Shown here one piece after another: positions 1 through 63,947 of a stretch of DNA of 64,000 nt; position 1 is the stretch's first letter; every line of letters starts with the position of its first letter. The position numbers were made by a program, and so were the translations under genes. The stretch is taken from NCBI GenBank assembly GCA_900618425.1, contig UZAN01039451.1, positions 9,478 through 73,477 on the forward strand. Direction: 5' to 3'. This stretch comes from Echinostoma caproni (lineage: Eukaryota; Platyhelminthes; Trematoda; Plagiorchiida; Echinostomatidae). Below the pieces are notes generated by a model that was not told where the DNA came from, searched no databases, and saw only the letters and a program-made list of their open reading frames with translations.

Positions 1-292
1 TGACTGTTCTCGATAAGCCGACTGACAGATAAACCCTAAACCATCGGAATATGTAACTGGAAGAGACTTATGGGAACACGCTATAAGTGAGTTGATGCGA
101 GTATAAGGTTATTATTTTTGTATTTGATGCCGCAAAAATATGCAAAAATTTGATTGGACGGTAGATTTCATTTTTCATAATACCAATGAAATCCTCTCTT
201 GATACAGTATACTAATAATACCAATCATTATAATAGCAGAATTCATGGAATGCAGTTTCACTGGCTCTAGTCATTATAAGTAAACGGATTAA

Positions 293-351
<59 letters not shown>

Positions 352-2563
352 NTATAAAGACATTATCTTGTCGTTTTGCGTCAAAGAGCTTTAAATTCAT
401 GTGTATCTGACTTTTATGTCTAGTCTCGAGTTGTAGAATGTTGTTATCTGTTAACTCTAGTAAACTCAATGTCTTTATGGATTTCCATTCTTTTACTGAT
501 TCCTACTTATTTATCGTGTGTCGCATCCTATGCCAACCGCAAGAAAGTGAATCTTTTCCTCGATGTTTTACTCAGATTTGTGATCATGCTCTTCTTGGGC
601 ATCAATAAAACCTGAAAACCTCACCGGACTCCGAGAACCACTGAATAATATAGAATTAGTCTCTATATTTTGGATATGCTCATTGTTTGATCATGCTTCT
701 TGTAGAAACGGTTCCTTATTTATTTCTGACTGATGAATTTTTATCCCTTATTGTGCTAATTAAAGCGAATTTTGACTTGACTTGATCTAACAGAGATTTC
801 AAATTGCATTATACGCAGAACTGATATTATTTTGGCTCATTTGATCTCGTACCTAAAAACGTTATATTTATATTGTGGTTTTTCAGCAGTAACGTGCTCG
901 CGTAAAAGCCGACTCAACAGATCTTGAAATGAAAATATCAAATACGAGGTATTTTCTTAACGAGAAGCTCACTTGGGTCAACTGCAGATGAGTAACGGAT
1001 GAGGAATATTTTATAAGCGCTCTCTTTGCATGAAATCACTTGATCTGCTTTTATCATACATTTCTTTCATGGACTAAAATATTAACCGCTCTGGTCATTC
1101 ATAATGGTCACTAAGTGGATGCAATTGTCATATGCGAGGTTTGTGTGAGTTGCTTGATTGCCGTGCTTCTCATTGTGCATAGTGCAATTTGCCGACAGAC
1201 CAATACACCGGAATGCCATAACTGAGCGTAATCTATTCAATTCCAGCTGAAGAGGGTTTTCATTGGTAGGGTGCACAAAGCGCAAAATTTTTCATCATAA
1301 ACGATATGCGCTCACGCAGATCTAGAGTGTGATACACAAATTAGCGCGAAAAAACGTAATCAAGATTATGGAGACATCAATGTAATCTATGAATCTAAAT
1401 ACGAGATGCTTCTTCACGCTCGAAAAGGAATTTTGTATGTTCAGGGAGGGTTTTCCACAATTATGATTACGATACCGTAATGTTATGATCTGATGGTGTT
1501 ACACCTTAATTATTTGTACTTTTTCCATTGTTTCATAGTCAATTACTGCGGTGCGAAACAAAATTTACGCTGAAAGTCTGTACCTACGCCATTGTCATTT
1601 ATCCATATTTTGATCGATTCAAAAAATGGAAACTTGTCATAACAATAAACCAAGAACTACGTACCGGTACAAGCTGCAACCAAGAATAAGCGAATGTCCG
1701 TTGAAAAGTTTGGTATACGATATACCGATAACATCAAAGCATGGCATAAACAGCATAGCAGAAATGCGTCTTGAATGTTCCAGTACAAATCAGGAACTGC
1801 TGAATATCGCTCAGTCATGGCATATGAGTCACCAAATCGGATTTAACGGTGGAAAAGTATAGAGCTGCATTGAATGACATCGGTACTCGGAGATAAACTG
1901 TAGTCGAATGCTTCGAACAACAGACATTTTTGGAGTTTACGGTAAGAACGATGTTTCGGGTAACGTAGAGGATCATCTTCAGTCGTTCTCAAGCAGGTCA
2001 CATTACAGAAATAAACCTGCAACGATTTGAAACAGGTAGCTCCTTTTCTCCGTTTCTTATCCGAATTGTCTTAGTCAAACCAAACAACGTCTGGAACCGG
2101 TGGCCGCATGACCATCTGAATATTTTCACTTGTGTCAAAAGGTTGCGTTCGAAGAGTTCGGATCAGCATCATTCTAGGTTCGCATGACATAGTTGTTGTA
2201 TTCGGCTACTTTAATTCACGAATACTTGTTATATGAAAAGAATGATCGATGCGTATGGTGCACACACGCCGATCAGTCATGCGATTTGCTTGGGGACGAG
2301 GAGTCAAATAATTTTCTTTTTCAAGGTGACTGGAATATGTTAGTTTACAATAGTATAATTTGGTGATTAAGTTATAGTGCAATCATGTCCAAATAAATGA
2401 ACGAAGCGATTTGGTTCGGTCTGTGTTATATTTCATTCCCTACATGAAATTTAGGATCAAGCTAAGGAATACTTTTACAAACTGCTAGGTCTACGAAATA
2501 TGATGGAAAATAAGTTTTTAAATAGCAAATTCATCTTTATGATTTTTTTGTTATGGTGCTTAC
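1..2563 (-). other. Region 3' of the last recognised microexon
   Basis: No unit with Gly register and both splice sites was found, and no terminal exon, C-terminal collagen domain or polyA signal can be supported. It may be intron, 3' flank or a 3' UTR. Confidence 0.5.
294..356. repeat. (TA)n microsatellite
   Basis: Uninterrupted TA dinucleotides apart from one N at 352, where the read or assembly probably slipped. Confidence 0.95.
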
Positions 2564-2572
2564 GTCCATTAC
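2564..2572 (-). CDS. Microexon m92: Gly-Asn-Gly
   Basis: 9 nt, GT-AAT-GGA-C; donor GTAAG, acceptor TCCAG. X is Gly, Y is Asn. Last unit recognised on the 3' side. Confidence 0.72.
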
Positions 2573-5500
2573 CTGGAAATTGTAAATACACAAAAAGTGT
2601 TATTAGCGATAATTTCTCACATTTTTTTAAAATTTTCTATTATTTATGGTACTTCATTTGGTATACCTGAAAAATATTTGTTGTACTAATCACAAACTAT
2701 TTTTTCCGACTTTCTCCAAATTCGATTTGTTCACATATGGAAAATATGCTGCTTCTTAAATTTTAATGTTCAAAATGAACGGACGGGTTAACACCGTTAT
2801 TTAGGTATGATATTTTTGTGGAGTTCCGGTTTTTCTGGGTTTAAAAGGTGTGGGTGACATTTTTCGAATTGGTTCTTTTGATTATCAAAGTTCAGTTGAT
2901 TTAGAATGCCATATTCTACTTGGATATCCTGAAGACTATTACAGAATAACCCGGACTGTTATTCAACTGTCCATAGGGTTGATATGTTTCATTATCCACA
3001 TCAGAGCAGAAATGATGAACGGCCATCTTCCGAGTTGTCCTTGCAACGGCCAATTTCCTTTTGTGCTTCTTTCAAGATTTGCCTTCAACTAACTATTATT
3101 GATTTTTTTTCTATATTCAGATCTGTAAGGAAGATGCATGTCATTTGAAGATCGATAATTTAAAACCATTCTTCAAAGAAACGCGATGAATAGAATCTTC
3201 TGTTGGGAAGACTGTTGTTGTTGAATAGCGAATGGATTCCAAGTTATTACCCTGTTCTAACCTTTGACTGAGGAAGGTTGATTGAGTCCGATAAAGAGAG
3301 TGGTTATAGAAATTGCGGAGAGAACATTCACCTGTGCCAACCAGCTCAATTATGGGAAGTTGCTTTGAAATGTGATGCGCTACGGGTGACCTGAGTTCGC
3401 AAACCGCAGCGACTTTTACCCCAAGACGATCGAGTGTTATTTGGACAAGCGGTGATTTACCAAGTAGTTGCTGATGGTTTTCAGCGGAATATTTGAATGT
3501 GTTAGTGGTAGTCGGTAACTGTGATCGTGTAAACTGTTTCCATGTTTTACTCTCGGACATTGTAGGACTTGTGCTTGTTTTTGCAATGATCTCAAAACAT
3601 TTTATTACCATTTTATCTCACTTACCTGTGACGCACACCGAATAAGTGGCAGCGGACGACAATTATTTTAATAGTGATTCTTCAACACGTTATCAGTCAT
3701 TACTTACCTCCGTCACCTGAAGATAGAGAATGAAAAAGAAATTTTCTAATGTAAATTCCGTTCATCTTAGTTTCCACGCAAATTTTATTTGATAAATTTC
3801 TAGTTCATAACTGAAAAATATTAGTCGCACTGTGCACCAGTTATTAGTGGACTTCCAGGGATGTATCCTTTAGGTGAAAATTTGTATGTGTTAGATTGGG
3901 GATGTATTTAGCTTTTGTCAGAGCCCCGTTTCTGCGTCATATACCCGTTTCTATCTGAACATGGTTTTCGCTTGTAGGATGTAAATAACACAGCCTGCTT
4001 TTTCGAAACTACTGCGACTGCATGCATACCTGCTTTGTTTGTGGGTTAACGTGGTATCCATCTAATGTCCATTGGTAACTGTTTCATCTGAATGCGTTTT
4101 ATAAGGTAATTTTAAGGTACTCTACGCGTCACAGTATTGATCAGCTCAATTCTTTTCACTCAGTGAGCAGGAGCTCATCCATCAAACATGTGCTTCCTGA
4201 GGGACTACCAAGAATTTTATTTATTAGTCTTGCATAGTACAAATGGACATAATGCGTTGGCAATTTAAGAGAATGTTGAGTATTTTTGAAGGCTATTTTG
4301 ATATTGCTCGTCGTATACTTCGATTAATGGTTTTAATGGTCCTAGTGATGACGAGACTAGAATGTTGAAACGATCGGTATGAATATATATGGATGAATTC
4401 ATTAGAATATGTTATTGCATATTTGGTCGTTTTGCTGTTTGTGCTGTTTCGTTGATGTCTCGATGATCTTCCTCAGTACATAGTGATAAAACTAGATTAA
4501 TCCATTTGAACACCTAGATATATTTGATTTTTTTTATTTCTTAGGTGTAATTTGAATTCCCGGAAAGCTCTGAATTGCCTATATATCAGTATGAACGTAT
4601 TTATTGTGGGAAGGAATGTGAGATCTTTCAAAACATCACTGAACATCATTTTGGGGAGTCTTTACCATCGCCTTAGATATTTTTTTCCTTACTGATGTCA
4701 AACCACGAACTTTCGAGATGGGCTTTTAAACCCGAAGGTTACATTCTGAGCCTTGCTTTAAAGATGAGCCACAATCCCGTACAGCAACAAATTGCTTTGT
4801 TCCTCGTTCGCTCAGAGCCGCAGATAAATGTTTTTCCACCAATTTGTTTACCCATGAATCAGTTTTCGAGATTATTAGACACCGGTTGGTTGATGGGCAT
4901 GTGTTGCATAAAACAGTTTTGTGCAAAGTGCAAACAATTCCAAACTCGTTTTGCTACTGCTCAGAGAAAAACCTACGCAAATCTGCTGGGGGACTCACCT
5001 GGCCAAACTGCGAAAGATTTGGAAGTCATTTTATTCTTCGATTATTTTTGTTATTAACAAAAACGTATGTAGCGTATTTCTTTATACAATGAAAATTTGA
5101 TCATAAAGCAGCAGTTTACCATGAAAATAACGATATGAATCATTACATGCAGATTAGAACCAATAGGTGTTTTCTTACCTCCAGGACCTGCGAGAGAAAT
5201 ATTATTTGTTGATAATTTGTGAACAGGTTGATATAATTGATTTTTTGATTAAGGTTTTGTGCACTGAAATCTGAATTCAATTAATATGCACGTTTCAAAA
5301 ATACTATAAAACGTAGATAGTCAGGGATTATAGTTATTTTCAACAATTCCATCAAGGAAGTTCTTCGTTATCTGTAATTTGAAGTCATGAAGTATGTACC
5401 TCAATGTCAGCGGCAGGTTTATTGCTTTTTCAAACACATCTAATAGGAAATACCCGAAATTGTATGGATGTATGGGTATTTTCAAACGTTTTTAAAGTTG

Positions 5501-59500: not shown

Positions 59501-62500
59501 AGATTTCTATATGCAATTGTAGGGAGATGCGGCCAGAATAAATACCGCATTCAATTGATCTTGCACAAAACTTGAGCTTAGAACTTACGGCCACGTTCTG
59601 AAATCAAGAATGCATGATGATTAATTACAGCAGTCTGTTACCATGTTTTCAGTAGATGTATACAAAAACCAAAACACTTTATGAACTGTTATTTCAGTGA
59701 TTCATTTTTCACAAATACATACACCTTCGAATCTGTTGGAAGAACTTACCACCATTGGCTGGAGAGGGGAGGGAAATTGTATGCATTTAGAGAGGTCGTG
59801 GTGGAGTTTAATGACGAAACAACTAATACGCACACTCAAGTCACATCCGCTGTATCTATACTCAGCCTTCATTGATAAAGCCCATCAAGTGTGGTATCCG
59901 AATTCACTGCTTATCAGTTTCTCAAGTAGTTTCTCAAGTAGAAACTGATCTTGATCTGGTGCATTAAAACTTTGACGAAAATGAATAGAAACAGATGTGG
60001 TCTACGTCCGAACATAGATGTTTTATGCACATTAAATGACTTGGATACACTAACTGTTTTGTAAATGCAACTGTAACTTCGTCCCTGATAAACTCATTTT
60101 TATAATTTGCGTTATCGAACGTTGGTGCGAAATTATGATTTCTACAATTCTTCACTCACGTCCTATACTGGCTTTCTGTTAACTAGACTGATTTACCTAA
60201 GTTGACCCAAAACATAATTCGCCTCCATCCGTCTGCTATCCTGGTATTTGTTTTCATAAAAAGATATCCACATTAATTTAGAACAATTCATTAAAAACAT
60301 TTTGTCCGCCTACATATTCTGTTCGTTCGAGATTTACCACGGCAGAGCGAACAAAATAAAATTGCAAAAACGCTCGTTTGCAGTTATTCGTAATTATGCC
60401 AATATGTAATAATATCACCAATCAAGAACAAAGGAAAAAAATACACTAGGATTGATTTGATTAGCAGACCCAAGATCAGAATAATAAGGGTAACATAGTT
60501 GTTTATTCACCACTCCTGGTATTGAGACTCCAGTAGTTGAGTTGTTTGTGAGGTGTGGTGTGAGGCTTAAGCGCTTAGAGGAATGTAGAAGAGGTTGTAC
60601 CGAACAATACTGCCGTGGCACGTGACATATAACAGTCAATCTGCCTTGATAATCGACAAAGAAAGTAACTTATAAATGACGACGAAAACACATTCTCTTT
60701 CACAGTATCAGTTGTTTCATCTAAGTTTGAAGTCACTACTTTTATGAGTGACTTCATCGTTCTGGTGTTTATCCATGAGTCCATTTGAACAATCAAATTA
60801 TTGTGCATTTTAACTTATATGCGTTTTCATTATTCTTGCATGATTACGAATCAACTATCCGATCCTTGTGTTCCCAATATCTTCTAGGGAACGATTTAGA
60901 TAAAGTAGAGAAGCTACTGTGAGTTGACACAAGATTTTCGGCTGATGATGATTTTATATTAAATATATTAATAATATTATGATATCCTACATTAGATATT
61001 TCATTCTTCGGAATAAATATGCTCAATCCCGCAGAGATTTTAAAACTCATAATGACTAGTATCACAAGTGTTAAGTTACATTGCAAGAAGAAATTTCACG
61101 ATGCCACTGCAGATTTAGCCGAGCATGCGATTTGCTTCTAATTTATTAGTTTATGTCAAAAAACAGATACAGTTTAATCATTTAAAGTTTACTCACCTCC
61201 AGCGCCTTATACGCAGATTCGGATTTGAGGAAAACAAGCAAAATACACAAAATCAGATCGCAAAGGGAAATTAACATCTTACACCACAATGTTACTTATG
61301 ATACAATTTGTATACAAAGCGCTTTCTGACATACTGTTTTTCTTACATGCGTTGTTATTTATTTATTAAAAATAGGTTAAATATAAACTAAAGTTGGATC
61401 ATCATAAACGGTGAAAATCAACTGTGTTACGCTGAGTTTGCTGGACAGTGTTGTTATTGTGGCTTCATAGATATTTCCGGTATGATGAAGGTAACTTACA
61501 TCCACGTGCTGGACGCAACAAATGAAGGAAAAGCATTCGGAAGATATCGCAATTATGGATAGACAGGTGAATCTATGCAAATGAACAGCCTCATTTGAGC
61601 AGAGTAAATGACCAACTACTGTTGCTTCTATTTTAAAAATACGTAAATATGCTGGATATGTGTCTTGCATAGACAAACTGAGTTCCACACGAAACAAATG
61701 TCTCATACAAATTAAGTGTATTTCATTGAGTCATCCTTTTTCAAAGTTTTGCTGTTGTGATGTGTAATAAACTCCCTTGTCTGAGATAAATAAAAGAAAC
61801 GTTAGATTTTTAGGTAGACGTACTTGTTGTGTAATCCTAATTATAATGGTTACTATCACTCCAAATAGAAAGAACCAAAAAGGAGACTTTGATATTTCCT
61901 TTTTTACTGTACGTTTTAGGTTTTACTAGTGTGACACAACGGACTCTTAGGAGGGGATCACAAACTAAATGCAATCACAAACTTACGACCAGGTTCTACA
62001 AGAGAACAGACAAAAACATTAGTTGCAACGTCGAGCTATTTAATAGAGCTATTTGAGATCAATTAAGTTAAAACGAGGTGAAAACAGGAAATGCAGAAGT
62101 TCAGACTTCCTACGAATCAAAATCGTGATAACCTTATTTCTAGCAATATTCAACCGTGGGTTTATCTAACCTACTGGTTTATTACGCTTCTATTTGGTTA
62201 CCACTTTCACAGGTCTAACTCTACATTGTCCGTGAATTTGGAACTTGATTTATCAATAAACTTCATTTCCTCGAGCTTTAGAAAAAATAATGTGTAAGAA
62301 GGTACGGTGATTTGCACAGCAATATCCTGATCACATTTTTTTCAATATCCTTAATTATGCTATTTAAAAGATTCTTATGGGGAGGGCATAATCAGTGGTT
62401 GGTCAGATGATCTACATGATCCAGAACATGAGCAACCATCGCATTCATTTTGGAAAGCGACACGTCCACTATCTCAAACATGAGGTTGCAACTCAACAGA

Positions 62501-63947
62501 CTGGCTAAGACAATGAAATCTCGCATGATTTGATCAGCTCTATAATTCGGCTGTAACGTTGATTTCAACTGCTAGCCGGATCGGTATAGCGAAATATTTC
62601 TCACGAAAGTACTATCCTGGAAGAGTTTTGATCAATCACATTGTTTGTTAATTAATGTTGTTTTATTCACAGATCAGGTTTGTACTAACCTCCGACACCT
62701 AAATGCATTTACAATATTAGGAGAGACAAAACAATAATAATTTTAATAAAAAAACGAGCCTTCTTTTTTCATAAAACATTTTTATTCTAAAGAATCAATA
62801 ATCTGAAAGTGTTTTTCGGTTACATTCTCACATAGGATTTATAGTATTTTCAGTCTATTTTACTACGTTCTCCGAACCATTCTCGTTCTGATATGCTCAC
62901 CGCGTCTTCTTCTCCCGTAAGATATATGTGCTAAATTTTTATCACGTGGTGCATACAATAATGTACTTGTGCTATCTATCAAACCGCGTTGCCCATCGCT
63001 TGTGTCTACTGTCAGGCATATTGAATATAGGAGTAAATAGCATTTAATGCAGTATGGTCTCGGATTCAACCAGCAATCAAACCAGCCATAATCATCTCCT
63101 AATCGTCTTGGCTGCCACACTATTTTGTTTTCAGTCCTAACGAAGATGTACACACACTGTGATACCCAGGCCTTAGGACTCTTTGCTAATATATTGGAAA
63201 CAAAGCACAACTGTTTCAGGAACTTAAAACATTTCAGCCGCTAGGGGGTTGAACGATAGGGACCGTCACCTCACTGTTCAGTGATTTATGTATTTGAATC
63301 ACTGTCATAGCTCTTTTAAATCCCGCTCACACTTGTAACCTCCCATTGTTCATGACCGTTCAACTGAATTCTGACTGTAAATTTACCGAATATCAAATAA
63401 ATAAAATCTGAAGATTATTTTAGGTAAATAAATCATTATTTTTTTTGTTATACTTTTTTCCATCGGGTGGGCAAACCATTTTCAGATAAATGTAGTACAT
63501 TGTGTCTGATAGAAATAGTTTATTCGTTTAAATTCCGCAAATCACACAAAAACCTATAACTCACATCCGGGTGCTTAATAAAGAAAAGGCAGAAGGAAGA
63601 TCATTCGAAAATTTAATTAATTACCCTCCAATCAGTGCGTTCGCGTGAAAAGAATACTTACTCAAATGTTTTTACTCTCCCGCCCCTCAAAATGAACTGC
63701 GTGAAAATCTGGTGGGCATTACAGTGTTCTGCTCTTATTTTACATCATTGTTACTTCACAATTGTTATTATCAACAGATTGATACAATGACTTTGACTAC
63801 AGGCACCCGGGAATAGTTCTCATTATTCGTCTTCTATGAAGCATGTTTTTCACCTGAATCAGAGGCTGACTTTTTATTAGCCCTTTAATATTGGTTCTGA
63901 AAACAAGATCATATATAACATGAAATTTTGAAACTTACGACCGGGTT
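2564..63947 (-). CDS. Collagen-like gene built of 6-12 nt microexons (partial, interior)
   Basis: Predicted extracellular collagen-like triple helix. Seen: 92 minus-strand units with an AG acceptor, an exon of 9 nt (80 cases), 6 nt (11) or 12 nt (1), then a donor that is GTAAG in about 57 and GTGAG in about 20. The 9-nt exons all read NN-NNN-GGN-N, so after splicing each adds X-Y-Gly with X split by a phase-1 intron. Y is Pro 44, Arg 13, Ala 5, Asn 4, Asp 3, others 1-2. There are no aromatics and no stop at any resolvable junction. Known of the family: collagen helices need Gly every third residue and favour Pro and Arg at Y; vertebrate fibrillar collagen helix exons are mostly 45-108 bp and start with a whole Gly codon, unlike these. 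Inferred: secreted, with Y-Pro hydroxylated. No signal peptide, terminal domain, promoter or polyA site is in view; the 5' end lies beyond the right edge. Alternative: a schistosome-type micro-exon gene (MEG) with a collagenous repeat. Confidence 0.85.
3141..3611 (-). other. 156-codon ORF inside an intron, unidentified
   Basis: Longest ORF of the window, same strand as the microexon gene, between m91 and m92, starting with ATG. No membrane segment or low complexity. Residues near 50-100 (LGVKVAAVCELRSP, then HHISKQL) faintly recall the region around the active site of retrotransposon aspartic proteases, but the catalytic Asp is absent. If this resemblance is real it is a dead retroelement fragment; otherwise it is chance. 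No function assigned. Confidence 0.2.
3616..3632 (-). promoter_or_regulatory. Possible recursive splice site
   Basis: Minus strand reads CACAG immediately followed by GTAAGTGAG, an acceptor abutting a perfect donor (zero-length exon) inside the intron m91-m92. The polypyrimidine tract before it is weak. Confidence 0.25.
3708..3716 (-). CDS. Microexon m91: Gly-Asp-Gly
   Basis: 9 nt, GT-GAC-GGA-G; donor GTAAG, acceptor TTCAG. X Gly, Y Asp. Confidence 0.78.
3717..5178 (-). other. Intron between m90 and m91
   Basis: About 1.46 kb, twice the mean. Nothing recognisable; ORFs on both strands at 4695-5092 overlap one another and look like chance. Confidence 0.6.
5179..5187 (-). CDS. Microexon m90: Ser-Pro-Gly
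   Basis: 9 nt, GT-CCT-GGA-G; donor GTAAG, acceptor CGCAG. Confidence 0.87.
5626..5634 (-). CDS. Microexon m89: Ala-Pro-Gly
   Basis: 9 nt, CG-CCC-GGA-A; donor GTAAG, acceptor CATAG. Flank resembles m81 (11102). Confidence 0.87.
5635..6870 (-). other. Intron between m88 and m89
   Basis: About 1.24 kb. One N at 6120. No unit or element seen. Confidence 0.6.
6871..6879 (-). CDS. Microexon m88: Pro-Pro-Gly
   Basis: 9 nt, CC-CCT-GGC-G; donor GTAAG, acceptor CATAG. Confidence 0.87.
7212..7220 (-). CDS. Microexon m87: Pro-Cys-Gly
   Basis: 9 nt, CA-TGT-GGA-C; donor GTAAA, acceptor TTCAG. Identical exon and similar flank to m79 (11895). Cys at Y is unusual. Confidence 0.75.
7508..7516 (-). CDS. Microexon m86: His-Pro-Gly
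   Basis: 9 nt, AT-CCT-GGC-C; donor GTAAG, acceptor TCTAG. Confidence 0.87.
7808..7816 (-). CDS. Microexon m85: Arg-Pro-Gly
   Basis: 9 nt, GA-CCT-GGA-C; donor GTAAG, acceptor TTCAG. Confidence 0.88.
8597..8605 (-). CDS. Microexon m84: Arg-Asp-Gly
   Basis: 9 nt, GT-GAT-GGA-C; donor GTAAG, acceptor TATAG. With X Arg it reads R-D-G, not R-G-D. Confidence 0.8.
9346..9354 (-). CDS. Microexon m83: Thr-Pro-Gly
   Basis: 9 nt, CT-CCT-GGC-C; donor GTAAG, acceptor TTCAG. Same exon sequence as m33 (44471). Confidence 0.88.
10406..10411 (-). CDS. 6-nt microexon m82: Ile-Gly
   Basis: 6 nt, TT-GGA-A; donor GTAAG, acceptor TTTAG. Lacks the Y codon, giving Gly-X-Gly. Confidence 0.7.
11102..11110 (-). CDS. 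Microexon m81: Ala-Pro-Gly
   Basis: 9 nt, CA-CCC-GGA-A; donor GTGAG, acceptor ACTAG. Intron flank resembles m30 (23937) and m89. Confidence 0.87.
11627..11635 (-). CDS. Microexon m80: Leu-Pro-Gly
   Basis: 9 nt, CT-CCT-GGT-G; donor GTAAG, acceptor TGCAG. Confidence 0.88.
11895..11903 (-). CDS. Microexon m79: Pro-Cys-Gly
   Basis: 9 nt, CA-TGT-GGA-C; donor GTAAG, acceptor TTCAG. Copy of m87. Confidence 0.8.
13064..13072 (-). CDS. Microexon m78: Ser-Arg-Gly
   Basis: 9 nt, GT-CGC-GGT-C; donor GTAAG, acceptor TTCAG. Confidence 0.85.
13402..13410 (-). pseudogene. Microexon copy with AT in place of GT donor
   Basis: TA-CCC-GGA-T (Pro-Gly) with acceptor CTCAG intact; the donor reads ATAAGT, a single-base change from GTAAGT. 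Either skipped, or spliced as a rare AT-AG intron. Joining to m78 would give Cys, with no stop. Confidence 0.5.
14111..14119 (-). CDS. Microexon m77: Val-Pro-Gly
   Basis: 9 nt, TT-CCT-GGA-A; donor GTACG, acceptor TTCAG. Confidence 0.82.
15183..15578 (+). other. Thr/Asn-rich ORF inside an intron
   Basis: Open for 131 codons on the strand opposite the microexon gene, in the 1.7 kb intron between m77 and m76. A hydrophobic stretch near residues 17-27 followed by Ala-Ala-His resembles a signal peptide and cleavage site. The rest is about half Thr, Asn, Ser and Ala with many N-x-S/T sequons, mucin-like. Against it: no in-frame ATG before Met codons in the middle of the ORF (it opens at TTG, with an in-frame stop at 15171), and much of it is ACT/ACC-like triplet repeat that stays open by composition. 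It may be a decayed or partial secreted-protein exon, or only low-complexity DNA. Confidence 0.22.
15578..15595. repeat. (ATC)n microsatellite
   Basis: Six ATC-type repeats directly after the Thr-rich ORF. Confidence 0.9.
15848..15856 (-). CDS. Microexon m76: Pro-Arg-Gly
   Basis: 9 nt, CC-CGG-GGC-G; donor GTGAG, acceptor TGCAG. Confidence 0.84.
16126..16134 (-). CDS. Microexon m75: Cys-Gln-Gly
   Basis: 9 nt, GT-CAA-GGA-C; donor GTAAT, acceptor TTCAG. X Cys arises from m74 ending in T. Confidence 0.76.
16790..16798 (-). CDS. Microexon m74: Lys-Pro-Gly
   Basis: 9 nt, AA-CCT-GGT-T; donor GTAAG, acceptor TCCAG. Confidence 0.87.
17071..17079 (-). CDS. Microexon m73: Ser-Asn-Gly
   Basis: 9 nt, CA-AAC-GGA-A; donor GTAAG, acceptor TTCAG. 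Confidence 0.8.
17335..17343 (-). pseudogene. Microexon copy with lost acceptor
   Basis: CC-CAC-GGC-G (His-Gly) with donor GTGAG; the acceptor dinucleotide is CG, not AG. The surrounding bases match m76 (15848), so this looks like a dead duplicate. Confidence 0.5.
17566..17574 (-). CDS. Microexon m72: Arg-Pro-Gly
   Basis: 9 nt, GA-CCT-GGA-T; donor GTGAG, acceptor TGTAG. Confidence 0.86.
18244..18252 (-). CDS. Microexon m71: Gly-Pro-Gly
   Basis: 9 nt, GA-CCA-GGC-C; donor GTAAG, acceptor AATAG. Confidence 0.86.
19069..19077 (-). CDS. Microexon m70: Ala-Pro-Gly
   Basis: 9 nt, CC-CCT-GGA-G; donor GTGTG (weak), acceptor TTCAG. Confidence 0.76.
19579..19587 (-). CDS. Microexon m69: Pro-Arg-Gly
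   Basis: 9 nt, CC-CGA-GGT-G; donor GTACG, acceptor TGCAG. Confidence 0.8.
19967..19975 (-). CDS. Microexon m68: Ala-Leu-Gly
   Basis: 9 nt, CA-CTT-GGA-C; donor GTAAG, acceptor TTCAG. Confidence 0.8.
20159..20197. repeat. TA-rich microsatellite
   Basis: Imperfect TA run interrupted by G, within the intron between m68 and m67. Confidence 0.85.
20665..20673 (-). CDS. Microexon m67: Ala-Arg-Gly
   Basis: 9 nt, CT-CGA-GGA-G; donor GTGAG, acceptor TCCAG. Intron flanks align with those of m61 (24674). Confidence 0.86.
21011..21019 (-). CDS. Microexon m66: Arg-Pro-Gly
   Basis: 9 nt, GA-CCC-GGA-G; donor GTAAT, acceptor CTCAG. Same exon as m60 (25015). Confidence 0.85.
21487..21495 (-). CDS. Microexon m65: Ser-Glu-Gly
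   Basis: 9 nt, GT-GAA-GGA-A; donor GTAAG, acceptor TCTAG. Confidence 0.8.
22442..22450 (-). pseudogene. Microexon copy with lost donor
   Basis: GT-CCT-GGG-C (Pro-Gly) with acceptor TCTAG; the donor reads TGCTCG. It lies 4,023 bp from the intact m58 (26465), in step with the duplicated block described for 20665-26473. Confidence 0.45.
22526..22548. other. Assembly gap (23 N)
   Basis: Run of N. Sequence, and possibly a microexon, may be missing here. Confidence 0.98.
23101..23109 (-). CDS. Microexon m64: Lys-Pro-Gly
   Basis: 9 nt, AA-CCT-GGC-A; donor GTAAG, acceptor AACAG. Confidence 0.87.
23937..23945 (-). CDS. Microexon m63: Ala-Pro-Gly
   Basis: 9 nt, CA-CCA-GGA-A; donor GTAAG, acceptor CACAG. 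X would be Pro instead of Ala if m62 is skipped. Confidence 0.87.
24291..24296 (-). CDS. 6-nt microexon m62 without Gly: Arg-Ala
   Basis: 6 nt, GA-GCC-G; donor GTAAG, acceptor TTCAG. Splice sites are ideal and frame is kept, but no GGN codon is present. It could be a 3-nt deletion product, or a chance site. Confidence 0.4.
24674..24682 (-). CDS. Microexon m61: Ala-Arg-Gly
   Basis: 9 nt, CT-CGT-GGT-C; donor GTACA, acceptor TCCAG. Confidence 0.82.
25015..25023 (-). CDS. Microexon m60: Arg-Pro-Gly
   Basis: 9 nt, GA-CCC-GGA-G; donor GTAAG, acceptor ACAAG. Confidence 0.86.
25459..25467 (-). CDS. Microexon m59: Ala-Asn-Gly
   Basis: 9 nt, CT-AAT-GGA-A; donor GTAAG, acceptor TTTAG. Confidence 0.8.
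26465..26473 (-). CDS. Microexon m58: Arg-Pro-Gly
   Basis: 9 nt, GT-CCT-GGC-G; donor GTAAG, acceptor TAAAG. Confidence 0.85.
26791..26796 (-). CDS. 6-nt microexon m57: Ile-Gly
   Basis: 6 nt, TT-GGA-C; donor GTGAG, acceptor TACAG. Confidence 0.75.
27742..27750 (-). CDS. Microexon m56: Ala-Pro-Gly
   Basis: 9 nt, CA-CCT-GGC-A; donor GTAAG, acceptor AACAG. Confidence 0.88.
28134..28142 (-). CDS. Microexon m55: Arg-Pro-Gly
   Basis: 9 nt, GT-CCC-GGA-G; donor GTAAA, acceptor TCCAG. Confidence 0.86.
28610..28618 (-). CDS. Microexon m54: Ser-Pro-Gly
   Basis: 9 nt, GT-CCT-GGC-C; donor GTGAG, acceptor CCCAG. Confidence 0.87.
28918..28926 (-). pseudogene. Microexon copy with TT in place of GT donor
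   Basis: AT-CCC-GGA-T (Pro-Gly) with acceptor TTCAG; the donor reads TTAAGT, one base from GTAAGT. Probably a recently inactivated unit or an assembly error. Confidence 0.5.
29497..29505 (-). CDS. Microexon m53: Lys-Pro-Gly
   Basis: 9 nt, AA-CCT-GGC-A; donor GTGAG, acceptor TCCAG. Confidence 0.87.
29506..30830 (-). other. Intron between m52 and m53
   Basis: About 1.3 kb with nothing recognised. Confidence 0.6.
30831..30839 (-). CDS. Microexon m52: Gly-Ala-Gly
   Basis: 9 nt, GA-GCG-GGA-A; donor GTGAG, acceptor TTCAG. Confidence 0.8.
31000..31008 (-). CDS. Microexon m51: Pro-Arg-Gly
   Basis: 9 nt, CA-CGC-GGT-G; donor GTAAG, acceptor AATAG. Confidence 0.85.
31009..32369 (-). other. Intron between m50 and m51
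   Basis: About 1.4 kb with nothing recognised; the 99-codon plus-strand ORF at 31984-32283 has no feature to support it. Confidence 0.6.
32370..32378 (-). CDS. Microexon m50: Pro-Met-Gly
   Basis: 9 nt, CA-ATG-GGA-C; donor GTAAG, acceptor TTTAG. Confidence 0.78.
32784..32792 (-). CDS. Microexon m49: Lys-Thr-Gly
   Basis: 9 nt, AA-ACT-GGG-C; donor GTGAG, acceptor TTCAG. Confidence 0.77.
33553..33561 (-). CDS. Microexon m48: Cys-Pro-Gly
   Basis: 9 nt, GT-CCT-GGC-A; donor GTGAG, acceptor TTTAG. X Cys arises from m47 ending in T. Confidence 0.87.
33770..33778 (-). pseudogene. Microexon copy with lost acceptor
   Basis: TC-ACT-GGA-C (Thr-Gly) with donor GTAAG; the dinucleotide expected to be AG is GA. 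The nearest AG upstream in the transcript gives a 14-nt exon (33770-33783), which would shift the frame. Confidence 0.42.
34285..34293 (-). CDS. Microexon m47: Lys-Pro-Gly
   Basis: 9 nt, AA-CCC-GGA-T; donor GTAAG, acceptor TTCAG. Confidence 0.87.
34803..34811 (-). CDS. Microexon m46: Ala-Asp-Gly
   Basis: 9 nt, CT-GAT-GGC-A; donor GTGAG, acceptor TACAG. Confidence 0.78.
35429..35454. repeat. Short tandem duplication
   Basis: Two near-identical copies of a TTCTATAAGAAC unit in an intron. Confidence 0.6.
35717..35725 (-). CDS. Microexon m45: Leu-Lys-Gly
   Basis: 9 nt, TA-AAA-GGA-G; donor GTAAG, acceptor GACAG. The only Lys at Y, a candidate hydroxylysine site if this is a true collagen helix. 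Confidence 0.78.
36280..36288 (-). CDS. Microexon m44: Val-Pro-Gly
   Basis: 9 nt, TT-CCT-GGA-C; donor GTAAG, acceptor ACAAG. Confidence 0.85.
36744..36752 (-). CDS. Microexon m43: Arg-Ser-Gly
   Basis: 9 nt, GC-TCA-GGA-G; donor GTAAG, acceptor TGCAG. Confidence 0.8.
37254..37262 (-). CDS. Microexon m42: Val-Pro-Gly
   Basis: 9 nt, TC-CCA-GGA-C; donor GTAAG, acceptor TATAG. Confidence 0.86.
37677..37682 (-). CDS. 6-nt microexon m41: Ala-Gly
   Basis: 6 nt, CT-GGA-G; donor GTAAG, acceptor ACTAG. Confidence 0.72.
37683..38977 (-). other. Intron between m40 and m41
   Basis: About 1.3 kb; single N at 38654 within a repeated GGGTTATG motif. Confidence 0.6.
38978..38986 (-). CDS. Microexon m40: Pro-Arg-Gly, donor base unread
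   Basis: 9 nt, CA-CGC-GGA-G; acceptor TTTAG. The donor reads GNACT because of an N at 38976; GT is compatible but not shown. Confidence 0.7.
39607..39615 (-). CDS. Microexon m39: Pro-Pro-Gly
   Basis: 9 nt, CA-CCT-GGC-C; donor GTAAG, acceptor TCCAG. Confidence 0.88.
39616..41908 (-). other. Longest intron, between m38 and m39
   Basis: About 2.3 kb, roughly three mean spacings. Contains an 8-nt remnant (41721) and, at 40907-40915, AA-CCT-GGA-A with neither splice site, so it may have lost two or more units. Confidence 0.55.
41721..41728 (-). pseudogene. 8-nt microexon remnant
   Basis: GACCGGTC between acceptor TCAAG and donor GTGGA. It is one base short of the 9-nt form and would shift the frame, so it is probably dead or a chance match. 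Confidence 0.28.
41909..41917 (-). CDS. Microexon m38: Leu-Arg-Gly
   Basis: 9 nt, CT-CGA-GGA-C; donor GTGAG, acceptor TACAG. Ends the longest intron seen (about 2.3 kb). Confidence 0.85.
42295..42303 (-). CDS. Microexon m37: Leu-Pro-Gly
   Basis: 9 nt, TA-CCT-GGA-C; donor GTAAG, acceptor TTCAG. Confidence 0.88.
42743..42748 (-). CDS. 6-nt microexon m36: Glu-Gly
   Basis: 6 nt, AA-GGA-T; donor GTGAG, acceptor AACAG. Confidence 0.68.
43098..43103 (-). CDS. 6-nt microexon m35: X-Gly (one base unread)
   Basis: 6 nt, TN-GGA-G; donor GTAAG, acceptor TTCAG. The N at 43102 falls in the X codon; Ile if it matches the other TT-GGA exons. Confidence 0.7.
43519..43527 (-). pseudogene. Possible microexon copy with lost donor
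   Basis: TT-CCG-GGG-A (Pro-Gly) with acceptor TACAG; the donor position reads ACCATT. Phase and codons fit, but with one splice site only it may be chance. Confidence 0.28.
44343..44351 (-). CDS. Microexon m34: Leu-Pro-Gly
   Basis: 9 nt, CT-CCC-GGA-A; donor GTAAG, acceptor TTTAG. Only 119 nt of intron separates it from m33. Confidence 0.87.
44471..44479 (-). CDS. Microexon m33: Leu-Pro-Gly
   Basis: 9 nt, CT-CCT-GGC-C; donor GTAAG, acceptor TACAG. Confidence 0.88.
44659..44667 (-). CDS. Microexon m32: Leu-Ala-Gly
   Basis: 9 nt, TT-GCT-GGA-C; donor GTAAG, acceptor TTTAG. Confidence 0.82.
45314..45319 (-). CDS. 6-nt microexon m31: Ile-Gly
   Basis: 6 nt, TT-GGA-C; donor GTAAG, acceptor TGTAG. 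Confidence 0.75.
46173..46181 (-). CDS. Microexon m30: Glu-Pro-Gly
   Basis: 9 nt, AA-CCG-GGA-A; donor GTAAG, acceptor TTTAG. Confidence 0.87.
46232..46253. repeat. G tract
   Basis: Run of G broken by one C and one N; C-rich in the transcript of the microexon gene. It lies 50 nt 5' (transcript sense) of m30's acceptor. Confidence 0.9.
46431..46439 (-). CDS. Microexon m29: Arg-Gln-Gly
   Basis: 9 nt, GC-CAA-GGA-G; donor GTACG, acceptor CACAG. Confidence 0.77.
47128..47136 (-). CDS. Microexon m28: Thr-Pro-Gly
   Basis: 9 nt, CC-CCA-GGA-C; donor GTGAG, acceptor AACAG. Confidence 0.87.
47753..47761 (-). CDS. Microexon m27: Leu-Pro-Gly
   Basis: 9 nt, CT-CCC-GGA-A; donor GTACG, acceptor TACAG. Confidence 0.84.
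48373..48381 (-). CDS. Microexon m26: Arg-Pro-Gly
   Basis: 9 nt, GA-CCT-GGA-C; donor GTAAG, acceptor TTTAG. Same exon sequence as m85. Confidence 0.88.
49018..49023 (-). CDS. 6-nt microexon m25: Ala-Gly
   Basis: 6 nt, CA-GGA-A; donor GTGAG, acceptor AACAG. Confidence 0.72.
49535..49543 (-). CDS. Microexon m24: Ala-Pro-Gly
   Basis: 9 nt, CC-CCC-GGT-G; donor GTAAG, acceptor TTTAG. Confidence 0.87.
50498..50506 (-). CDS. Microexon m23: Leu-Pro-Gly
   Basis: 9 nt, TG-CCA-GGA-G; donor GTATG, acceptor TACAG. Confidence 0.84.
51014..51022 (-). CDS. Microexon m22: Glu-Arg-Gly
   Basis: 9 nt, AA-AGA-GGC-T; donor GTAAG, acceptor TGTAG. Arg here uses AGA, unlike the CGN of the other Y-Arg exons. Confidence 0.8.
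51992..52000 (-). CDS. Microexon m21: Ala-Pro-Gly with GC donor
   Basis: 9 nt, CT-CCC-GGA-G; acceptor CGCAG; donor GCACG, so the downstream intron would be of the GC-AG class. Confidence 0.65.
52342..52347 (-). CDS. 6-nt microexon m20 without Gly: Gly-Gln
   Basis: 6 nt, GC-CAA-G; donor GTAAC, acceptor AGAAG. Looks like m29 (GC-CAA-GGA-G) with GGA deleted. An alternative 9-nt reading (52342-52350, AA-GGC-CAA-G) also lacks Gly in register. Confidence 0.38.
52855..52863 (-). CDS. Microexon m19: Pro-Pro-Gly
   Basis: 9 nt, CC-CCT-GGC-G; donor GTAAG, acceptor TGCAG. Same exon sequence as m88. Confidence 0.88.
53370..53378 (-). CDS. Microexon m18: Val-Ala-Gly
   Basis: 9 nt, TT-GCC-GGA-C; donor GTAAG, acceptor TGCAG. 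Confidence 0.82.
53837..53845 (-). CDS. Microexon m17: Ala-Arg-Gly
   Basis: 9 nt, CT-CGA-GGC-G; donor GTGAG, acceptor TTTAG. Confidence 0.85.
54231..54236 (-). CDS. 6-nt microexon m16: Val-Gly
   Basis: 6 nt, TT-GGA-G; donor GTAAG, acceptor AACAG. Confidence 0.75.
54237..55631 (-). other. Intron between m15 and m16
   Basis: About 1.4 kb with nothing recognised. Confidence 0.6.
55632..55640 (-). CDS. Microexon m15: Leu-Pro-Gly
   Basis: 9 nt, CT-CCC-GGG-G; donor GTAAG, acceptor TTCAG. Confidence 0.87.
55845..55853 (-). CDS. Microexon m14: Leu-Pro-Gly
   Basis: 9 nt, CT-CCT-GGA-C; donor GTGAG, acceptor AACAG. Confidence 0.88.
56763..56771 (-). CDS. Microexon m13: Leu-Arg-Gly
   Basis: 9 nt, TC-CGC-GGT-C; donor GTAAG, acceptor TTCAG. 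Confidence 0.85.
56945..56950 (-). CDS. 6-nt microexon m12: Val-Gly
   Basis: 6 nt, TT-GGA-C; donor GTAAG, acceptor AAAAG. Confidence 0.7.
57515..57523 (-). CDS. Microexon m11: Leu-Pro-Gly
   Basis: 9 nt, CT-CCC-GGT-G; donor GTAAG, acceptor TTAAG. Confidence 0.85.
57524..58813 (-). other. Intron between m10 and m11
   Basis: About 1.3 kb; contains one possible dead unit at 58673. Confidence 0.6.
58673..58681 (-). pseudogene. Possible microexon copy with lost acceptor
   Basis: AA-CGA-GGA-A (Arg-Gly) with donor GTGGA; the acceptor position reads AT. Only 132 nt from m10. One-sided evidence only. Confidence 0.27.
58814..58822 (-). CDS. Microexon m10: Leu-Ala-Gly
   Basis: 9 nt, CT-GCT-GGA-C; donor GTAAG, acceptor TTTAG. 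Confidence 0.83.
59589..59597 (-). CDS. Microexon m9: Glu-Arg-Gly
   Basis: 9 nt, AA-CGT-GGC-C; donor GTAAG, acceptor TTCAG. Confidence 0.85.
59750..59758 (-). CDS. Microexon m8: Pro-Asn-Gly
   Basis: 9 nt, CC-AAT-GGT-G; donor GTAAG, acceptor TCCAG. Intron to m9 is only 152 nt. Confidence 0.8.
59913..59949. repeat. Inverted repeat with tandem core
   Basis: Ten-base arms ATCAGTTTCT and AGAAACTGAT (perfect complements) enclose two tandem copies of a TTTCTCAAGTAG unit that overlap the left arm. Could fold as a hairpin in the intron between m8 and m7. Confidence 0.75.
60160..60171 (-). CDS. 12-nt microexon m7: Ala-Ser-Ile-Gly
   Basis: 12 nt, CC-AGT-ATA-GGA-C; donor GTGAG, acceptor GAAAG. Adds four residues, so Gly spacing is +4 here. 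An internal CAG would give an 8-nt, frame-breaking exon. Confidence 0.55.
61197..61205 (-). CDS. Microexon m6: Cys-Ala-Gly
   Basis: 9 nt, GC-GCT-GGA-G; donor GTGAG, acceptor ATAAG. X Cys arises from m5 ending in T. Confidence 0.8.
61500..61508 (-). CDS. Microexon m5: Pro-Arg-Gly
   Basis: 9 nt, CA-CGT-GGA-T; donor GTAAG, acceptor TCCAG. Confidence 0.85.
61987..61995 (-). CDS. Microexon m4: Glu-Pro-Gly
   Basis: 9 nt, AA-CCT-GGT-C; donor GTAAG, acceptor TGTAG. Confidence 0.87.
62690..62698 (-). CDS. Microexon m3: Cys-Val-Gly
   Basis: 9 nt, GT-GTC-GGA-G; donor GTTAG, acceptor TTTAG. X Cys arises from m2 ending in T. Weaker because neither Y nor the donor is typical. Confidence 0.65.
63340..63348 (-). 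pseudogene. Possible microexon copy with lost acceptor
   Basis: CA-ATG-GGA-G (Met-Gly, like m50) with donor GTTAC; the acceptor position reads AA. One-sided evidence only. Confidence 0.27.
63565..63573 (-). CDS. Microexon m2: Pro-Pro-Gly
   Basis: 9 nt, CA-CCC-GGA-T; donor GTGAG, acceptor TTAAG. Confidence 0.85.
63676..63685 (-). pseudogene. 10-nt microexon-like unit (frame-breaking)
   Basis: GG-GCG-GGA-GA: a 9-nt Ala-Gly unit plus one base before a GTAAA donor; acceptor TTGAG. Inclusion would shift the frame; a 1-base insertion in a former unit is the simplest reading. Only 102 nt from m2. Confidence 0.33.
63939..63947 (-). CDS. Microexon m1: X-Pro-Gly
   Basis: 9 nt, AA-CCC-GGT-C; donor GTAAG, acceptor CGCAG. 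The first base of X comes from an exon beyond the right edge, which shows that the gene continues 5'. Confidence 0.87.

What the first reader, a model, noticed from the sequence alone, without database searches (positions are those of the whole stretch)
2564..63947. A collagen-like gene encoded one Gly-X-Y triplet per exon
92 units on the minus strand share acceptor AG + NN-NNN-GGN-N + donor GT in one register over 61 kb. By hand, with G and C at about 0.19 each, the bare pattern (AC, CC of Gly, CT on the plus strand) is expected about 8 times by chance, and well under once with a GTAAG/GTGAG donor in CTTAC/CTCAC context. About 77 have such donors. Y is Pro or Arg in 57 of 80 nine-nt exons although the pattern search does not require it. 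Known collagen helix exons are multiples of 9 bp but far longer; a gene of single-triplet exons is not something I know to be described.
Basis: partly seen in the sequence, partly recalled or inferred. Interest (0 to 1): 0.97.

Follow-up and report, generated by a model that had tools for sequence, protein, structure and literature searches.

The report
Collagen gene with one-triplet exons
This stretch of a parasitic fluke's genome holds a row of nine- and six-letter units, each framed by splice-site signals, that are predicted to be spliced together one Gly-X-Y triplet at a time into a collagen; exons this small in such long rows would be a new extreme of gene structure and a hard test for how cells find exons.

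Summary
On the minus strand, 86 units in the window (78 of 9 nt, 8 of 6 nt) and 4 just beyond it carry acceptor, NN-NNN-GGN-N (or NN-GGN-N) and donor in one phase. The bare pattern counts 82 minus and 4 plus (mean 5 in 100 shuffles); with a GTRAG donor 66 and 0. Only length 9 and, weakly, 6 stand out, with GG at positions 6-7. Joined in order (stops were excluded by the search), they read as a collagen helix of about 260 residues. The genome matches Echinostoma caproni, a trematode, and holds further arrays on five other contigs (74 nine-nt exons). Between copies whose aligned introns are 77% and 81% identical, all 28 aligned exon pairs keep both Gly G's. This points to selection on single-triplet exons in a family of at least four copies. 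Micro-exon candidates continue into the non-collagen flanks, as in schistosome micro-exon genes. Twelve ordinary collagen loci of the genome show no such chain. Splicing was not tested; the gene's ends were not found. COL4A5 has two single 9-bp exons; no array of them turned up in ten literature searches. New variant of a known kind, high interest.

The parts
63939..63947 (-). 9-nt exon AACCCGGTC
63565..63573 (-). 9-nt exon CACCCGGAT
62690..62698 (-). 9-nt exon GTGTCGGAG (weak donor; chosen in part because it avoids a T|AA stop)
61987..61995 (-). 9-nt exon AACCTGGTC
61500..61508 (-). 9-nt exon CACGTGGAT
61197..61205 (-). 9-nt exon GCGCTGGAG
59750..59758 (-). 9-nt exon CCAATGGTG
59589..59597 (-). 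9-nt exon AACGTGGCC
58814..58822 (-). 9-nt exon CTGCTGGAC
57515..57523 (-). 9-nt exon CTCCCGGTG
56945..56950 (-). 6-nt exon TTGGAC (G1G interruption)
56763..56771 (-). 9-nt exon TCCGCGGTC
55845..55853 (-). 9-nt exon CTCCTGGAC
55632..55640 (-). 9-nt exon CTCCCGGGG
54231..54236 (-). 6-nt exon TTGGAG (G1G interruption)
53837..53845 (-). 9-nt exon CTCGAGGCG
53370..53378 (-). 9-nt exon TTGCCGGAC
52855..52863 (-). 9-nt exon CCCCTGGCG
51014..51022 (-). 9-nt exon AAAGAGGCT
50498..50506 (-). 9-nt exon TGCCAGGAG
49535..49543 (-). 9-nt exon CCCCCGGTG
49018..49023 (-). 6-nt exon CAGGAA (G1G interruption)
48373..48381 (-). 9-nt exon GACCTGGAC
47753..47761 (-). 9-nt exon CTCCCGGAA
47128..47136 (-). 9-nt exon CCCCAGGAC
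46431..46439 (-). 9-nt exon GCCAAGGAG
46173..46181 (-). 9-nt exon AACCGGGAA
45314..45319 (-). 6-nt exon TTGGAC (G1G interruption)
44659..44667 (-). 9-nt exon TTGCTGGAC
44471..44479 (-). 9-nt exon CTCCTGGCC
44343..44351 (-). 9-nt exon CTCCCGGAA
43098..43103 (-). 6-nt exon TNGGAG (G1G interruption; one ambiguous base)
42295..42303 (-). 9-nt exon TACCTGGAC
41909..41917 (-). 9-nt exon CTCGAGGAC
39607..39615 (-). 9-nt exon CACCTGGCC
37677..37682 (-). 6-nt exon CTGGAG (G1G interruption)
37254..37262 (-). 9-nt exon TCCCAGGAC
36744..36752 (-). 9-nt exon GCTCAGGAG
36280..36288 (-). 9-nt exon TTCCTGGAC (weak acceptor)
35717..35725 (-). 9-nt exon TAAAAGGAG
34803..34811 (-). 9-nt exon CTGATGGCA
34285..34293 (-). 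9-nt exon AACCCGGAT
33553..33561 (-). 9-nt exon GTCCTGGCA
32784..32792 (-). 9-nt exon AAACTGGGC
32370..32378 (-). 9-nt exon CAATGGGAC
31000..31008 (-). 9-nt exon CACGCGGTG
30831..30839 (-). 9-nt exon GAGCGGGAA
29497..29505 (-). 9-nt exon AACCTGGCA
28610..28618 (-). 9-nt exon GTCCTGGCC
28134..28142 (-). 9-nt exon GTCCCGGAG (weak donor)
27742..27750 (-). 9-nt exon CACCTGGCA
26791..26796 (-). 6-nt exon TTGGAC (G1G interruption)
26465..26473 (-). 9-nt exon GTCCTGGCG
25459..25467 (-). 9-nt exon CTAATGGAA
25015..25023 (-). 9-nt exon GACCCGGAG (weak acceptor)
24674..24682 (-). 9-nt exon CTCGTGGTC (weak donor)
23937..23945 (-). 9-nt exon CACCAGGAA
23101..23109 (-). 9-nt exon AACCTGGCA
21487..21495 (-). 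9-nt exon GTGAAGGAA
20665..20673 (-). 9-nt exon CTCGAGGAG
19967..19975 (-). 9-nt exon CACTTGGAC
19579..19587 (-). 9-nt exon CCCGAGGTG
19069..19077 (-). 9-nt exon CCCCTGGAG
18244..18252 (-). 9-nt exon GACCAGGCC
17566..17574 (-). 9-nt exon GACCTGGAT
17071..17079 (-). 9-nt exon CAAACGGAA
16790..16798 (-). 9-nt exon AACCTGGTT
16126..16134 (-). 9-nt exon GTCAAGGAC
15848..15856 (-). 9-nt exon CCCGGGGCG
15731..15739 (-). 9-nt exon AAATGGGGG
14111..14119 (-). 9-nt exon TTCCTGGAA
13064..13072 (-). 9-nt exon GTCGCGGTC
11895..11903 (-). 9-nt exon CATGTGGAC (Cys at Y)
11627..11635 (-). 9-nt exon CTCCTGGTG
11102..11110 (-). 9-nt exon CACCCGGAA
10406..10411 (-). 6-nt exon TTGGAA (G1G interruption)
9346..9354 (-). 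9-nt exon CTCCTGGCC
8597..8605 (-). 9-nt exon GTGATGGAC
7808..7816 (-). 9-nt exon GACCTGGAC
7508..7516 (-). 9-nt exon ATCCTGGCC
7212..7220 (-). 9-nt exon CATGTGGAC (Cys at Y)
6871..6879 (-). 9-nt exon CCCCTGGCG
5626..5634 (-). 9-nt exon CGCCCGGAA
5179..5187 (-). 9-nt exon GTCCTGGAG
3708..3716 (-). 9-nt exon GTGACGGAG
2564..2572 (-). 9-nt exon GTAATGGAC, last collagen triplet found
1665..1673 (-). candidate non-collagen 9-nt micro-exon CTTGTACCG, same phase
   Evidence: inferred
1316..1321 (-). candidate non-collagen 6-nt micro-exon ATCTGC, same phase
   Evidence: inferred
973..981 (-). candidate non-collagen 9-nt micro-exon TTGACCCAA, same phase
   Evidence: inferred
27..56 (-). candidate non-collagen 30-nt micro-exon, same phase, donor GTCAG
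   Evidence: inferred

Best explanation
The window carries most of a collagen gene whose triple helix is predicted to be spliced from single-triplet exons: 86 units of 9 or 6 nt, each framed by splice-site signals in one phase, with introns of 108 to 2293 nt. Each 9-nt exon is the last two bases of the X codon, the whole Y codon, the whole Gly codon and the first base of the next X codon, so every splice completes an X residue. The spliceosome would work by intron definition, pairing each strong GTAAGT-like donor with the next acceptor, because a 9-nt exon is too short to be defined across itself (inferred). The product would be a secreted chain (inferred; no signal peptide was found) with a triple helix of about 260 residues, rich in Pro at Y (a substrate for hydroxylation, inferred), broken by eight one-residue G-x-G interruptions and carrying seven cysteines that could cross-link chains (inferred). 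The gene is one of a family of at least four copies in a trematode genome (copy number inferred from contigs that overlap at under 85% mean intron identity). The family likely grew by duplication of whole arrays, and selection keeps Gly and splice sites while introns drift.
For: Counts, shuffles, register and length controls. A chain search over the contig gives 90 collagen exons with score 835 on minus, 2.5 on plus, and at most 2.5 in four control stretches. The joined chain, 260 residues with one ambiguous residue typed as Ile, matches Pfam PF01391 Collagen at 102.7 bits, cut-off 27.2; Gly was partly required by the search, Pro at Y (44 of 82) was not. Split X codons: the last base of an exon and the first two of the next are coupled (mutual information 0.526 vs 0.331 shuffled, P 0.002, chain built with a stop veto; without the veto, 87 exons, 0.489 vs 0.344, P 0.015; to the next-but-one exon P 0.14, then 0.83 and 0.80). 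Five other contigs hold 74 nine-nt collagen exons in chains on one strand each, with no chain on the other. Comparison of copies: 28 of 28 aligned exon pairs keep both G's of Gly, while aligned introns are 76.7% and 81.3% identical; in the first comparison Gly G's changed at 0 of 38 sites vs 30 of 133 other exon sites, P 0.0004. Exon GC is 64.3% in a 36.5% GC window.
Against: No transcript or peptide was examined. First and last exons and a signal peptide were not found; bases 1-9477 of the contig, on the 3' side, read N. No orthologous protein stood out in two searches of 5.8 billion sequences, within the tool's length and candidate limits. Some units have weak splice sites (for example 62698, 36288, 25023, 24682). 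Long gaps (up to 2293 nt) may hide missed exons. The stop-free state of split codons is not in itself significant (0 observed, 1.3 expected by shuffling), and the search forbade stops; the earlier chain without that veto held one junction stop and one unit with an internal stop. C6505 has an in-frame TAA in its candidate 18-nt exon after the helix. The acceptor profile scores of the eight 6-nt exons are mostly low (0.4 to 5.6 in six of eight).
Confidence: 0.9

Rival explanations
1. The array works as a micro-exon variation generator: because every exon is symmetric, skipping any subset keeps the frame, and the gene makes many collagen chains of different helix length and cysteine content, as proposed for schistosome micro-exon genes.
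For: All 90 exons are 9 or 6 nt and in one phase (where the search admitted only lengths divisible by 3; the open length scan gives the same two lengths); micro-exon genes of schistosomes are said to make variants by alternative splicing of symmetric exons of 6 to 36 bp (PMC5825161; PMC4671649); micro-exon candidates go on into the non-collagen flanks.
Against: Split codons are coupled between neighbours, not significantly between next-but-one exons, which speaks for one main order; five of the seven cysteines come from codons split across a junction, T|GT four times and T|GC once, that skipping would lose; donors are GTAAG or GTGAG in 74 of 86.
Confidence: 0.25
2. The array is a relic: a dead gene whose units are still recognisable but no longer spliced into a protein.
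For: No transcript seen; no matching protein stood out; no gene ends found; C6505 has a stop in its candidate exon just after the helix.
Against: Paralogous copies keep Gly and donor positions +1 to +6 (1 change in 114) while aligned introns differ by 23%; this bears on the C5137 group directly and on the window's own array only by analogy, since the two do not align.
Confidence: 0.05
3. Chance or composition: splice-like motifs that happen to hold GG.
For: Four plus-strand hits show that the bare pattern does occur by chance.
Against: 66 vs 0 between strands, 0.1 expected; one register and two lengths stand out; six clusters in the genome, each on one strand, with 35 lone places among the 100 listed against 35 in the reversed-pattern control.
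Confidence: 0.005
4. The units are real but serve splicing rather than coding, for instance as stepping stones (recursive splice points) for removing one long intron.
For: Very long intron-rich stretch with strong donors; recursive splicing is known in animals (recalled).
Against: Recursive sites would not need Gly at a fixed place, Pro or Arg at Y (54 of 78), coupled split codons or Gly conserved between copies.
Confidence: 0.02

Closest known systems
COL4A5 exons 41A and 41B (vertebrate type IV collagen)
   Same: Two alternatively spliced 9-bp exons (title of Martin and Tryggvason 2001, seen only in the reference list of PMC7160674); a Gly codon begins at exon 41A (PMC7160674, passages).
   Different: Two optional exons in a gene of otherwise longer exons (recalled); here about 90 in a row make up the whole helix found. 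The split here is in the X codon; in 41A the passage implies a split inside the Gly codon.
Fibrillar collagen genes with 54- and 45-bp exons
   Same: Exons of a multiple of 9 bp coding for whole triplets; one model of the early gene even includes a 9-bp, single-triplet exon (PMC4450265, passages).
   Different: Six or five triplets per exon in today's genes; here one. The register also differs: here each exon starts and ends inside an X codon.
Micro-exon genes (MEGs) of schistosomes
   Same: Trematode genes made mostly of symmetric exons of 6 to 36 bp (PMC5825161, passages; PMC4671649, passages).
   Different: MEG proteins are small (those enriched in the head average about 10 kDa); here the exons are one or two fixed sizes and encode a collagen repeat, about 90 in a row; long flanking exons were not found.
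Ordinary collagens of the same genome
   Same: Same protein repeat, same genome: 134 PF01391 matches, a lower bound since 150 of 227 candidates were scored.
   Different: The matches lie in open frames of 61 to 369 codons, one of 946; the 12 loci fetched (pieces of about 3 kb) show no micro-exon chain.

Membership tests
Collagen (Pfam PF01391) | Gly-X-Y repeat over many triplets | tested here: met
   Joined chain 102.7 bits, cut-off 27.2; Gly favoured by the chain search, but kept in 28 of 28 paralogous pairs
Collagen (Pfam PF01391) | Pro-rich Y position | tested here: met
   Y is Pro in 44 and Arg in 13 of 82 nine-nt exons, not required by the search
Collagen (Pfam PF01391) | Made as a secreted protein that forms a triple helix | not testable with these tools
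   No convincing signal peptide exon found; needs transcript and protein work
Fibrillar collagen | Helix of about 1000 residues and COLFI C-propeptide | tested here: inconclusive
   Helix about 260 residues; no C-terminal domain found, 3' side reads N
Fibrillar collagen | 54/45-bp helix exons | tested here: not met
   Chain search admitted up to 57 nt and kept only 9 and 6 nt; length scan to 30 nt
Micro-exon gene (MEG) | Most coding sequence in symmetric exons of 6 to 36 bp | tested here: met
   All 90 helix exons; flank candidates: 6 on the 5' side, two of them overlapping, and 4 on the 3' side. The ends of the gene are unknown
Micro-exon gene (MEG) | Two long flanking exons, the 5' one with the signal peptide | tested here: inconclusive
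   None found in the sequence held
Micro-exon gene (MEG) | Small product without a collagen repeat | tested here: not met
   At least about 300 predicted residues, of which about 260 are collagen repeat

The most novel reading that the evidence does not exclude
Flukes own a family of collagen genes in which the triple helix is built one Gly-X-Y triplet per exon, so that about 100 consecutive micro-exons, nearly all of 6 or 9 nt, are stitched into each message; this is the longest row of sub-10-nt exons known and a living counterpart of a 9-bp collagen building unit.
Probability: 0.85. Interest if true: 0.92.

Novelty: new variant of a known kind. Interest (0 to 1): 0.9.

Why it matters
Exons much below 50 nt are hard for the spliceosome (recalled), and known 9-nt exons come singly or in small numbers (recalled, apart from COL4A5). 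About 90 of them in a row, all in one phase, with ordinary introns, in a gene whose product would suffer if one Gly were lost, asks how the cell pairs splice sites with near-perfect fidelity. It also gives a natural system in which collagen is cut into single triplets, which bears on why other collagen exons are multiples of 9 bp. And it may explain why such genes are overlooked: no relative stood out in the two protein searches made, and gene finders and read mappers tend to miss exons this small (recalled).

Tried and rejected
Chance, rejected by strand, register, length and shuffle controls. Recent tandem duplication of exon plus intron: no shared introns seen (repeats of 40 nt or more; all-against-all blastn of 89 introns, best E 0.004 over 23 nt), so if the array arose that way it is old. 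Other genes or mobile elements in the introns: 44 open frames of 85 residues or more without N gave no credible Pfam match (best E 0.019), no Rfam family at gathering threshold, no tRNA. Units considered and dropped from the chain: those with AG at 62474 and 28493 (poor donors), 43375 (stop inside, poor donor), 42748 (6 nt, acceptor score 0.3) and 41659 (18 nt, next triplet lacks Gly), 52000 (GC donor), and AG at 21021 (good exon, poor donor; possibly real). One non-collagen 5' link of the contig chain (CAGTTGATA) was left out of all counts of 90. Ends of the gene: no first exon with a convincing signal peptide and no terminal exon stood out. The organism was first sought through COX1, which gave no match, then found through an HSP70 frame. 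My first whole-genome pattern was one base out of register and says nothing about the array; one search has the right one. A second, narrower genome pattern did not complete, so 18 of the 118 hits stay unlisted. An extra exon in C6505 looked like a gain against C5137, but its counterpart lies in a run of N. C7334 aligns with none of the other arrays apart from 55 bases to C7938. Genus- or family-wide search was not possible: the genome has no relatives in the tool.

Full report
What was checked. On the minus strand the pattern AG-N5-GG-NN-GT occurs 82 times, on the plus strand 4 times. One hundred dinucleotide-preserving shuffles of the window give a mean of 5.0 and a maximum of 12. With a GTRAG donor the counts are 66 and 0 (shuffle mean 0.1, maximum 1), and with a YAG acceptor as well 60 and 0. 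Moving the GG to any of the seven other places in a 9-nt exon gives 0 to 4 on the minus strand. Changing the exon length from 4 to 30 nt gives 60 at length 9, 7 at length 6, and 2 or fewer elsewhere (all). Splice-site profiles were trained on the 74 minus-strand units with a GTRNG donor, so they owe something to the Gly pattern; a scan with them that does not ask for Gly still shows the 9-nt peak (77 minus, 4 plus) and a smaller one at 6 nt (12 and 5).

The gene model. A chain search that scores splice sites, favours Gly, favours 9 nt over other lengths divisible by 3 (up to 57 nt) and forbids stop codons was run on the window and on its contig. In the window it keeps 86 exons, 78 of 9 nt and 8 of 6 nt; 74 of 86 donors are GTAAG or GTGAG; acceptors are CAG 52, TAG 27, AAG 7; the 85 introns run from 108 to 2293 nt, median 636; exon GC is 64.3% against 36.5% for the window (from the base counts). 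Four more exons lie within 4 kb beyond the window's right end, so the collagen array has 90 exons, contig bases 12041 to 76850, and 261 codons; one further 5' link of that chain (CAGTTGATA, no Gly) was set aside as non-collagen. The score is 835 on the minus strand, 2.5 on the plus strand, and at most 2.5 in four control stretches of the same contig.

How each exon is built. Every 9-nt exon reads NN-NNN-GGN-N: the last two bases of X, the Y codon, the Gly codon, the first base of the next X. Introns all cut the X codon after its first base. Y is Pro in 44 and Arg in 13 of 82; X (89 junctions, one ambiguous) is Pro 23, Ala 13, Arg 9, Val 7 and so on. The 6-nt exons lack the Y codon and give G-x-G; x is Val, Val, Ala, Ile, unknown (ambiguous base), Pro, Ile, Ile. 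Short hydrophobic one-residue interruptions are known from non-fibrillar collagens (recalled). Six of the eight 6-nt exons have low acceptor scores (0.4 to 5.6), so they are less sure than the 9-nt ones. Seven cysteines stand at residues 9, 18, 27, 132, 206, 222 and 245 of the joined chain; the first three are nine residues apart.

Are neighbours joined? If exon i is spliced to exon i+1, its last base and the next two bases form a codon and should depend on each other. Mutual information is 0.526 against 0.331 for shuffled partners (P 0.002), but that chain excluded stops. For 87 exons picked by splice score and Gly without any stop veto it is 0.489 against 0.344 (P 0.015); for next-but-one exons P is 0.14, and 0.83 and 0.80 further on. 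The absence of stops alone is not significant (1.3 expected). This supports joining in genomic order; it does not exclude skipping of some exons.

A gene family. The window lies in a 426.5-Mb genome of 12,689 contigs. The pattern with Pro-like NGG at Y, CTYACNNCCNGGNNCTR, occurs 118 times in that genome (76 and 42 by strand) against 35 for the pattern read backwards. Of the 100 places listed, 34 lie on the window's contig, 13 on C5137, 9 on C6505, 4 on C8943, 3 on C7938, 2 on C7334, each cluster on one strand, and 35 lie alone on their contigs; 18 places were not listed. The same kind of chain search on fetched pieces gives 29 nine-nt exons on C5137 (score 271.7; other strand -7.4), 22 on C6505 (222.6; first 10 kb on the other strand 2.1), 9 plus a doubtful 18-nt one on C8943 (89.7; -9.6), 9 on C7938 (84.0; -12.4) and 5 on C7334 (57.1; -9.0): 74 nine-nt exons without the doubtful one. 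C5137, C6505 and C8943 hold the same last nine exons, so with C508 there are at least four copies; their mean intron identities of 77 to 83% over aligned parts look too low for alleles (inference; single stretches reach 91%). The arrays on these three contigs begin within 100 bases of the contig end on their 5' side, so these genes are probably longer than what is seen.

Selection. The last 19 consecutive exons of C5137 (of 29) align with C6505 exons (of 22); every one lands on an exon of the other chain. The filter would have passed over an exon with an indel, but none is missing within that stretch. Introns are 76.7% identical over the parts that align (5832 of 7602). Changes by exon position (X2 X3 Y1 Y2 Y3 G1 G2 G3 X1) are 10, 3, 5, 5, 2, 0, 0, 1, 4; donor positions +1 to +6 show 1 change in 114, acceptor AG 0 in 38. 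The Gly G's (0 of 38) differ from the other exon sites (30 of 133) with P 0.0004 and from introns with P 0.00006. C7938 against C5137 adds 9 of 9 exons, a different set of C5137 exons, Gly G's 0 of 18, introns 81.3%. The exons were chosen on one side by their GG, but the other side was free to lose it. The pairs with C8943 (9 and 9) agree but are not independent. The window's own array does not align with the others at DNA level beyond short stretches outside it, so for it selection is inferred from the intact pattern and from its relatives.

Flanks. Symmetric open micro-exon candidates of 6 to 30 nt are denser just outside the collagen array: 6 in 7.1 kb on the 5' side (two of them overlapping) and 4 in 2.6 kb on the 3' side, 8.5 and 15.7 per 10 kb, against 0.5 to 2.4 in five other stretches. 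Joined in the same phase they give TSKSVDKCPVSSLPACPKGAC before the helix and PCTDLLDPITYSDGLGFI after it, without a stop at the junctions. I take these as likely non-collagen ends of the same gene; they are less certain than the helix. No first or last exon was found; contig bases 1-9477 read N.

Organism. An HSP70 reading frame on contig C690 is 100% identical over 607 residues to a protein of Echinostoma caproni, a digenean trematode; the species rests on that one protein. Ordinary collagens are present: PF01391 matches 134 places, with 150 of 227 candidates scored. Twelve of these loci (pieces of about 3 kb) show no micro-exon chain (all scores negative). So the one-triplet structure is not a property of the genome's collagens at large.

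How it would work. Nine nucleotides are too few for factors at both ends of an exon to bind across it (recalled), so I expect intron definition with the strong GTAAGT-type donors doing most of the work; the last exon base is G in only 29 of 90, so the donor signal sits in the intron. The product would be a short, cysteine-bearing, interrupted collagen. What tissue it serves is not known from these data.

What is known. COL4A5 has two alternatively spliced 9-bp exons, 41A and 41B (PMC7160674, passages read; the primary paper, Martin and Tryggvason 2001, was seen only as a title in its reference list). Fibrillar collagen exons are 54 and 45 bp, and one model of the early collagen gene includes a 9-bp exon (PMC4450265, passages). 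Schistosome micro-exon genes have about 80% of their coding region in symmetric exons of 6 to 36 bp (PMC5825161, passages) and two long flanking exons (PMC4671649, passages). Ten searches of the open-access library listed no paper whose title or abstract start describes a collagen built from single-triplet exons; five of them returned nothing, and searches listed 20 of 39, 15 of 36 and 15 of 20. One search, which asked for 9-bp or 9-nt exons together with collagen, found only PMC7160674. Most subscription papers are outside that library, so this is not proof of absence. Two protein searches gave matches that I judge compositional; both were limited to proteins of similar length and to the 7950 and 7941 candidates sharing most words. 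A search of solved structures likewise gave collagens at large.

Verdict. The array is real, its relatives are under selection for Gly and splice sites, and it is best read as a collagen gene with one triplet per exon, one member of a trematode family. Splicing itself remains to be shown.

Noticed in passing
contig C508 86984-87475 minus, L011 (outside the window): A reading frame that looks like the integrase of a Gypsy-type retrotransposon, by eye and recall only.
   Followed up: no
L045 1492-3315; L043 1495-3324: Several divergent HSP70 genes in long open frames: 33 matches, frames over 500 residues on six contigs; the one on C690 is 54% identical to its best named relative outside the species, in Fasciola hepatica.
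   Followed up: partly
L041 6898-7294 (C7938) against C5137: A stretch of 399 bases at 99.5% identity in contigs otherwise mostly 67-85% alike; perhaps recent conversion, a collapsed haplotype or an assembly overlap.
   Followed up: no
L039 and L040, 3' of the C6505 and C8943 arrays: Fragments that look like non-LTR retrotransposon reverse transcriptase, by eye and recall only, partly shared between the two contigs.
   Followed up: no
window 15174-15575 plus: A Thr/Asn-rich open frame (131 codons from its first start), one of the 44 frames scanned without a credible Pfam match.
   Followed up: partly
contig C508 1-9477 and 106173-120784: Long runs of N, one of them at the very start of the contig; the 3' end of the gene may lie there.
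   Followed up: no
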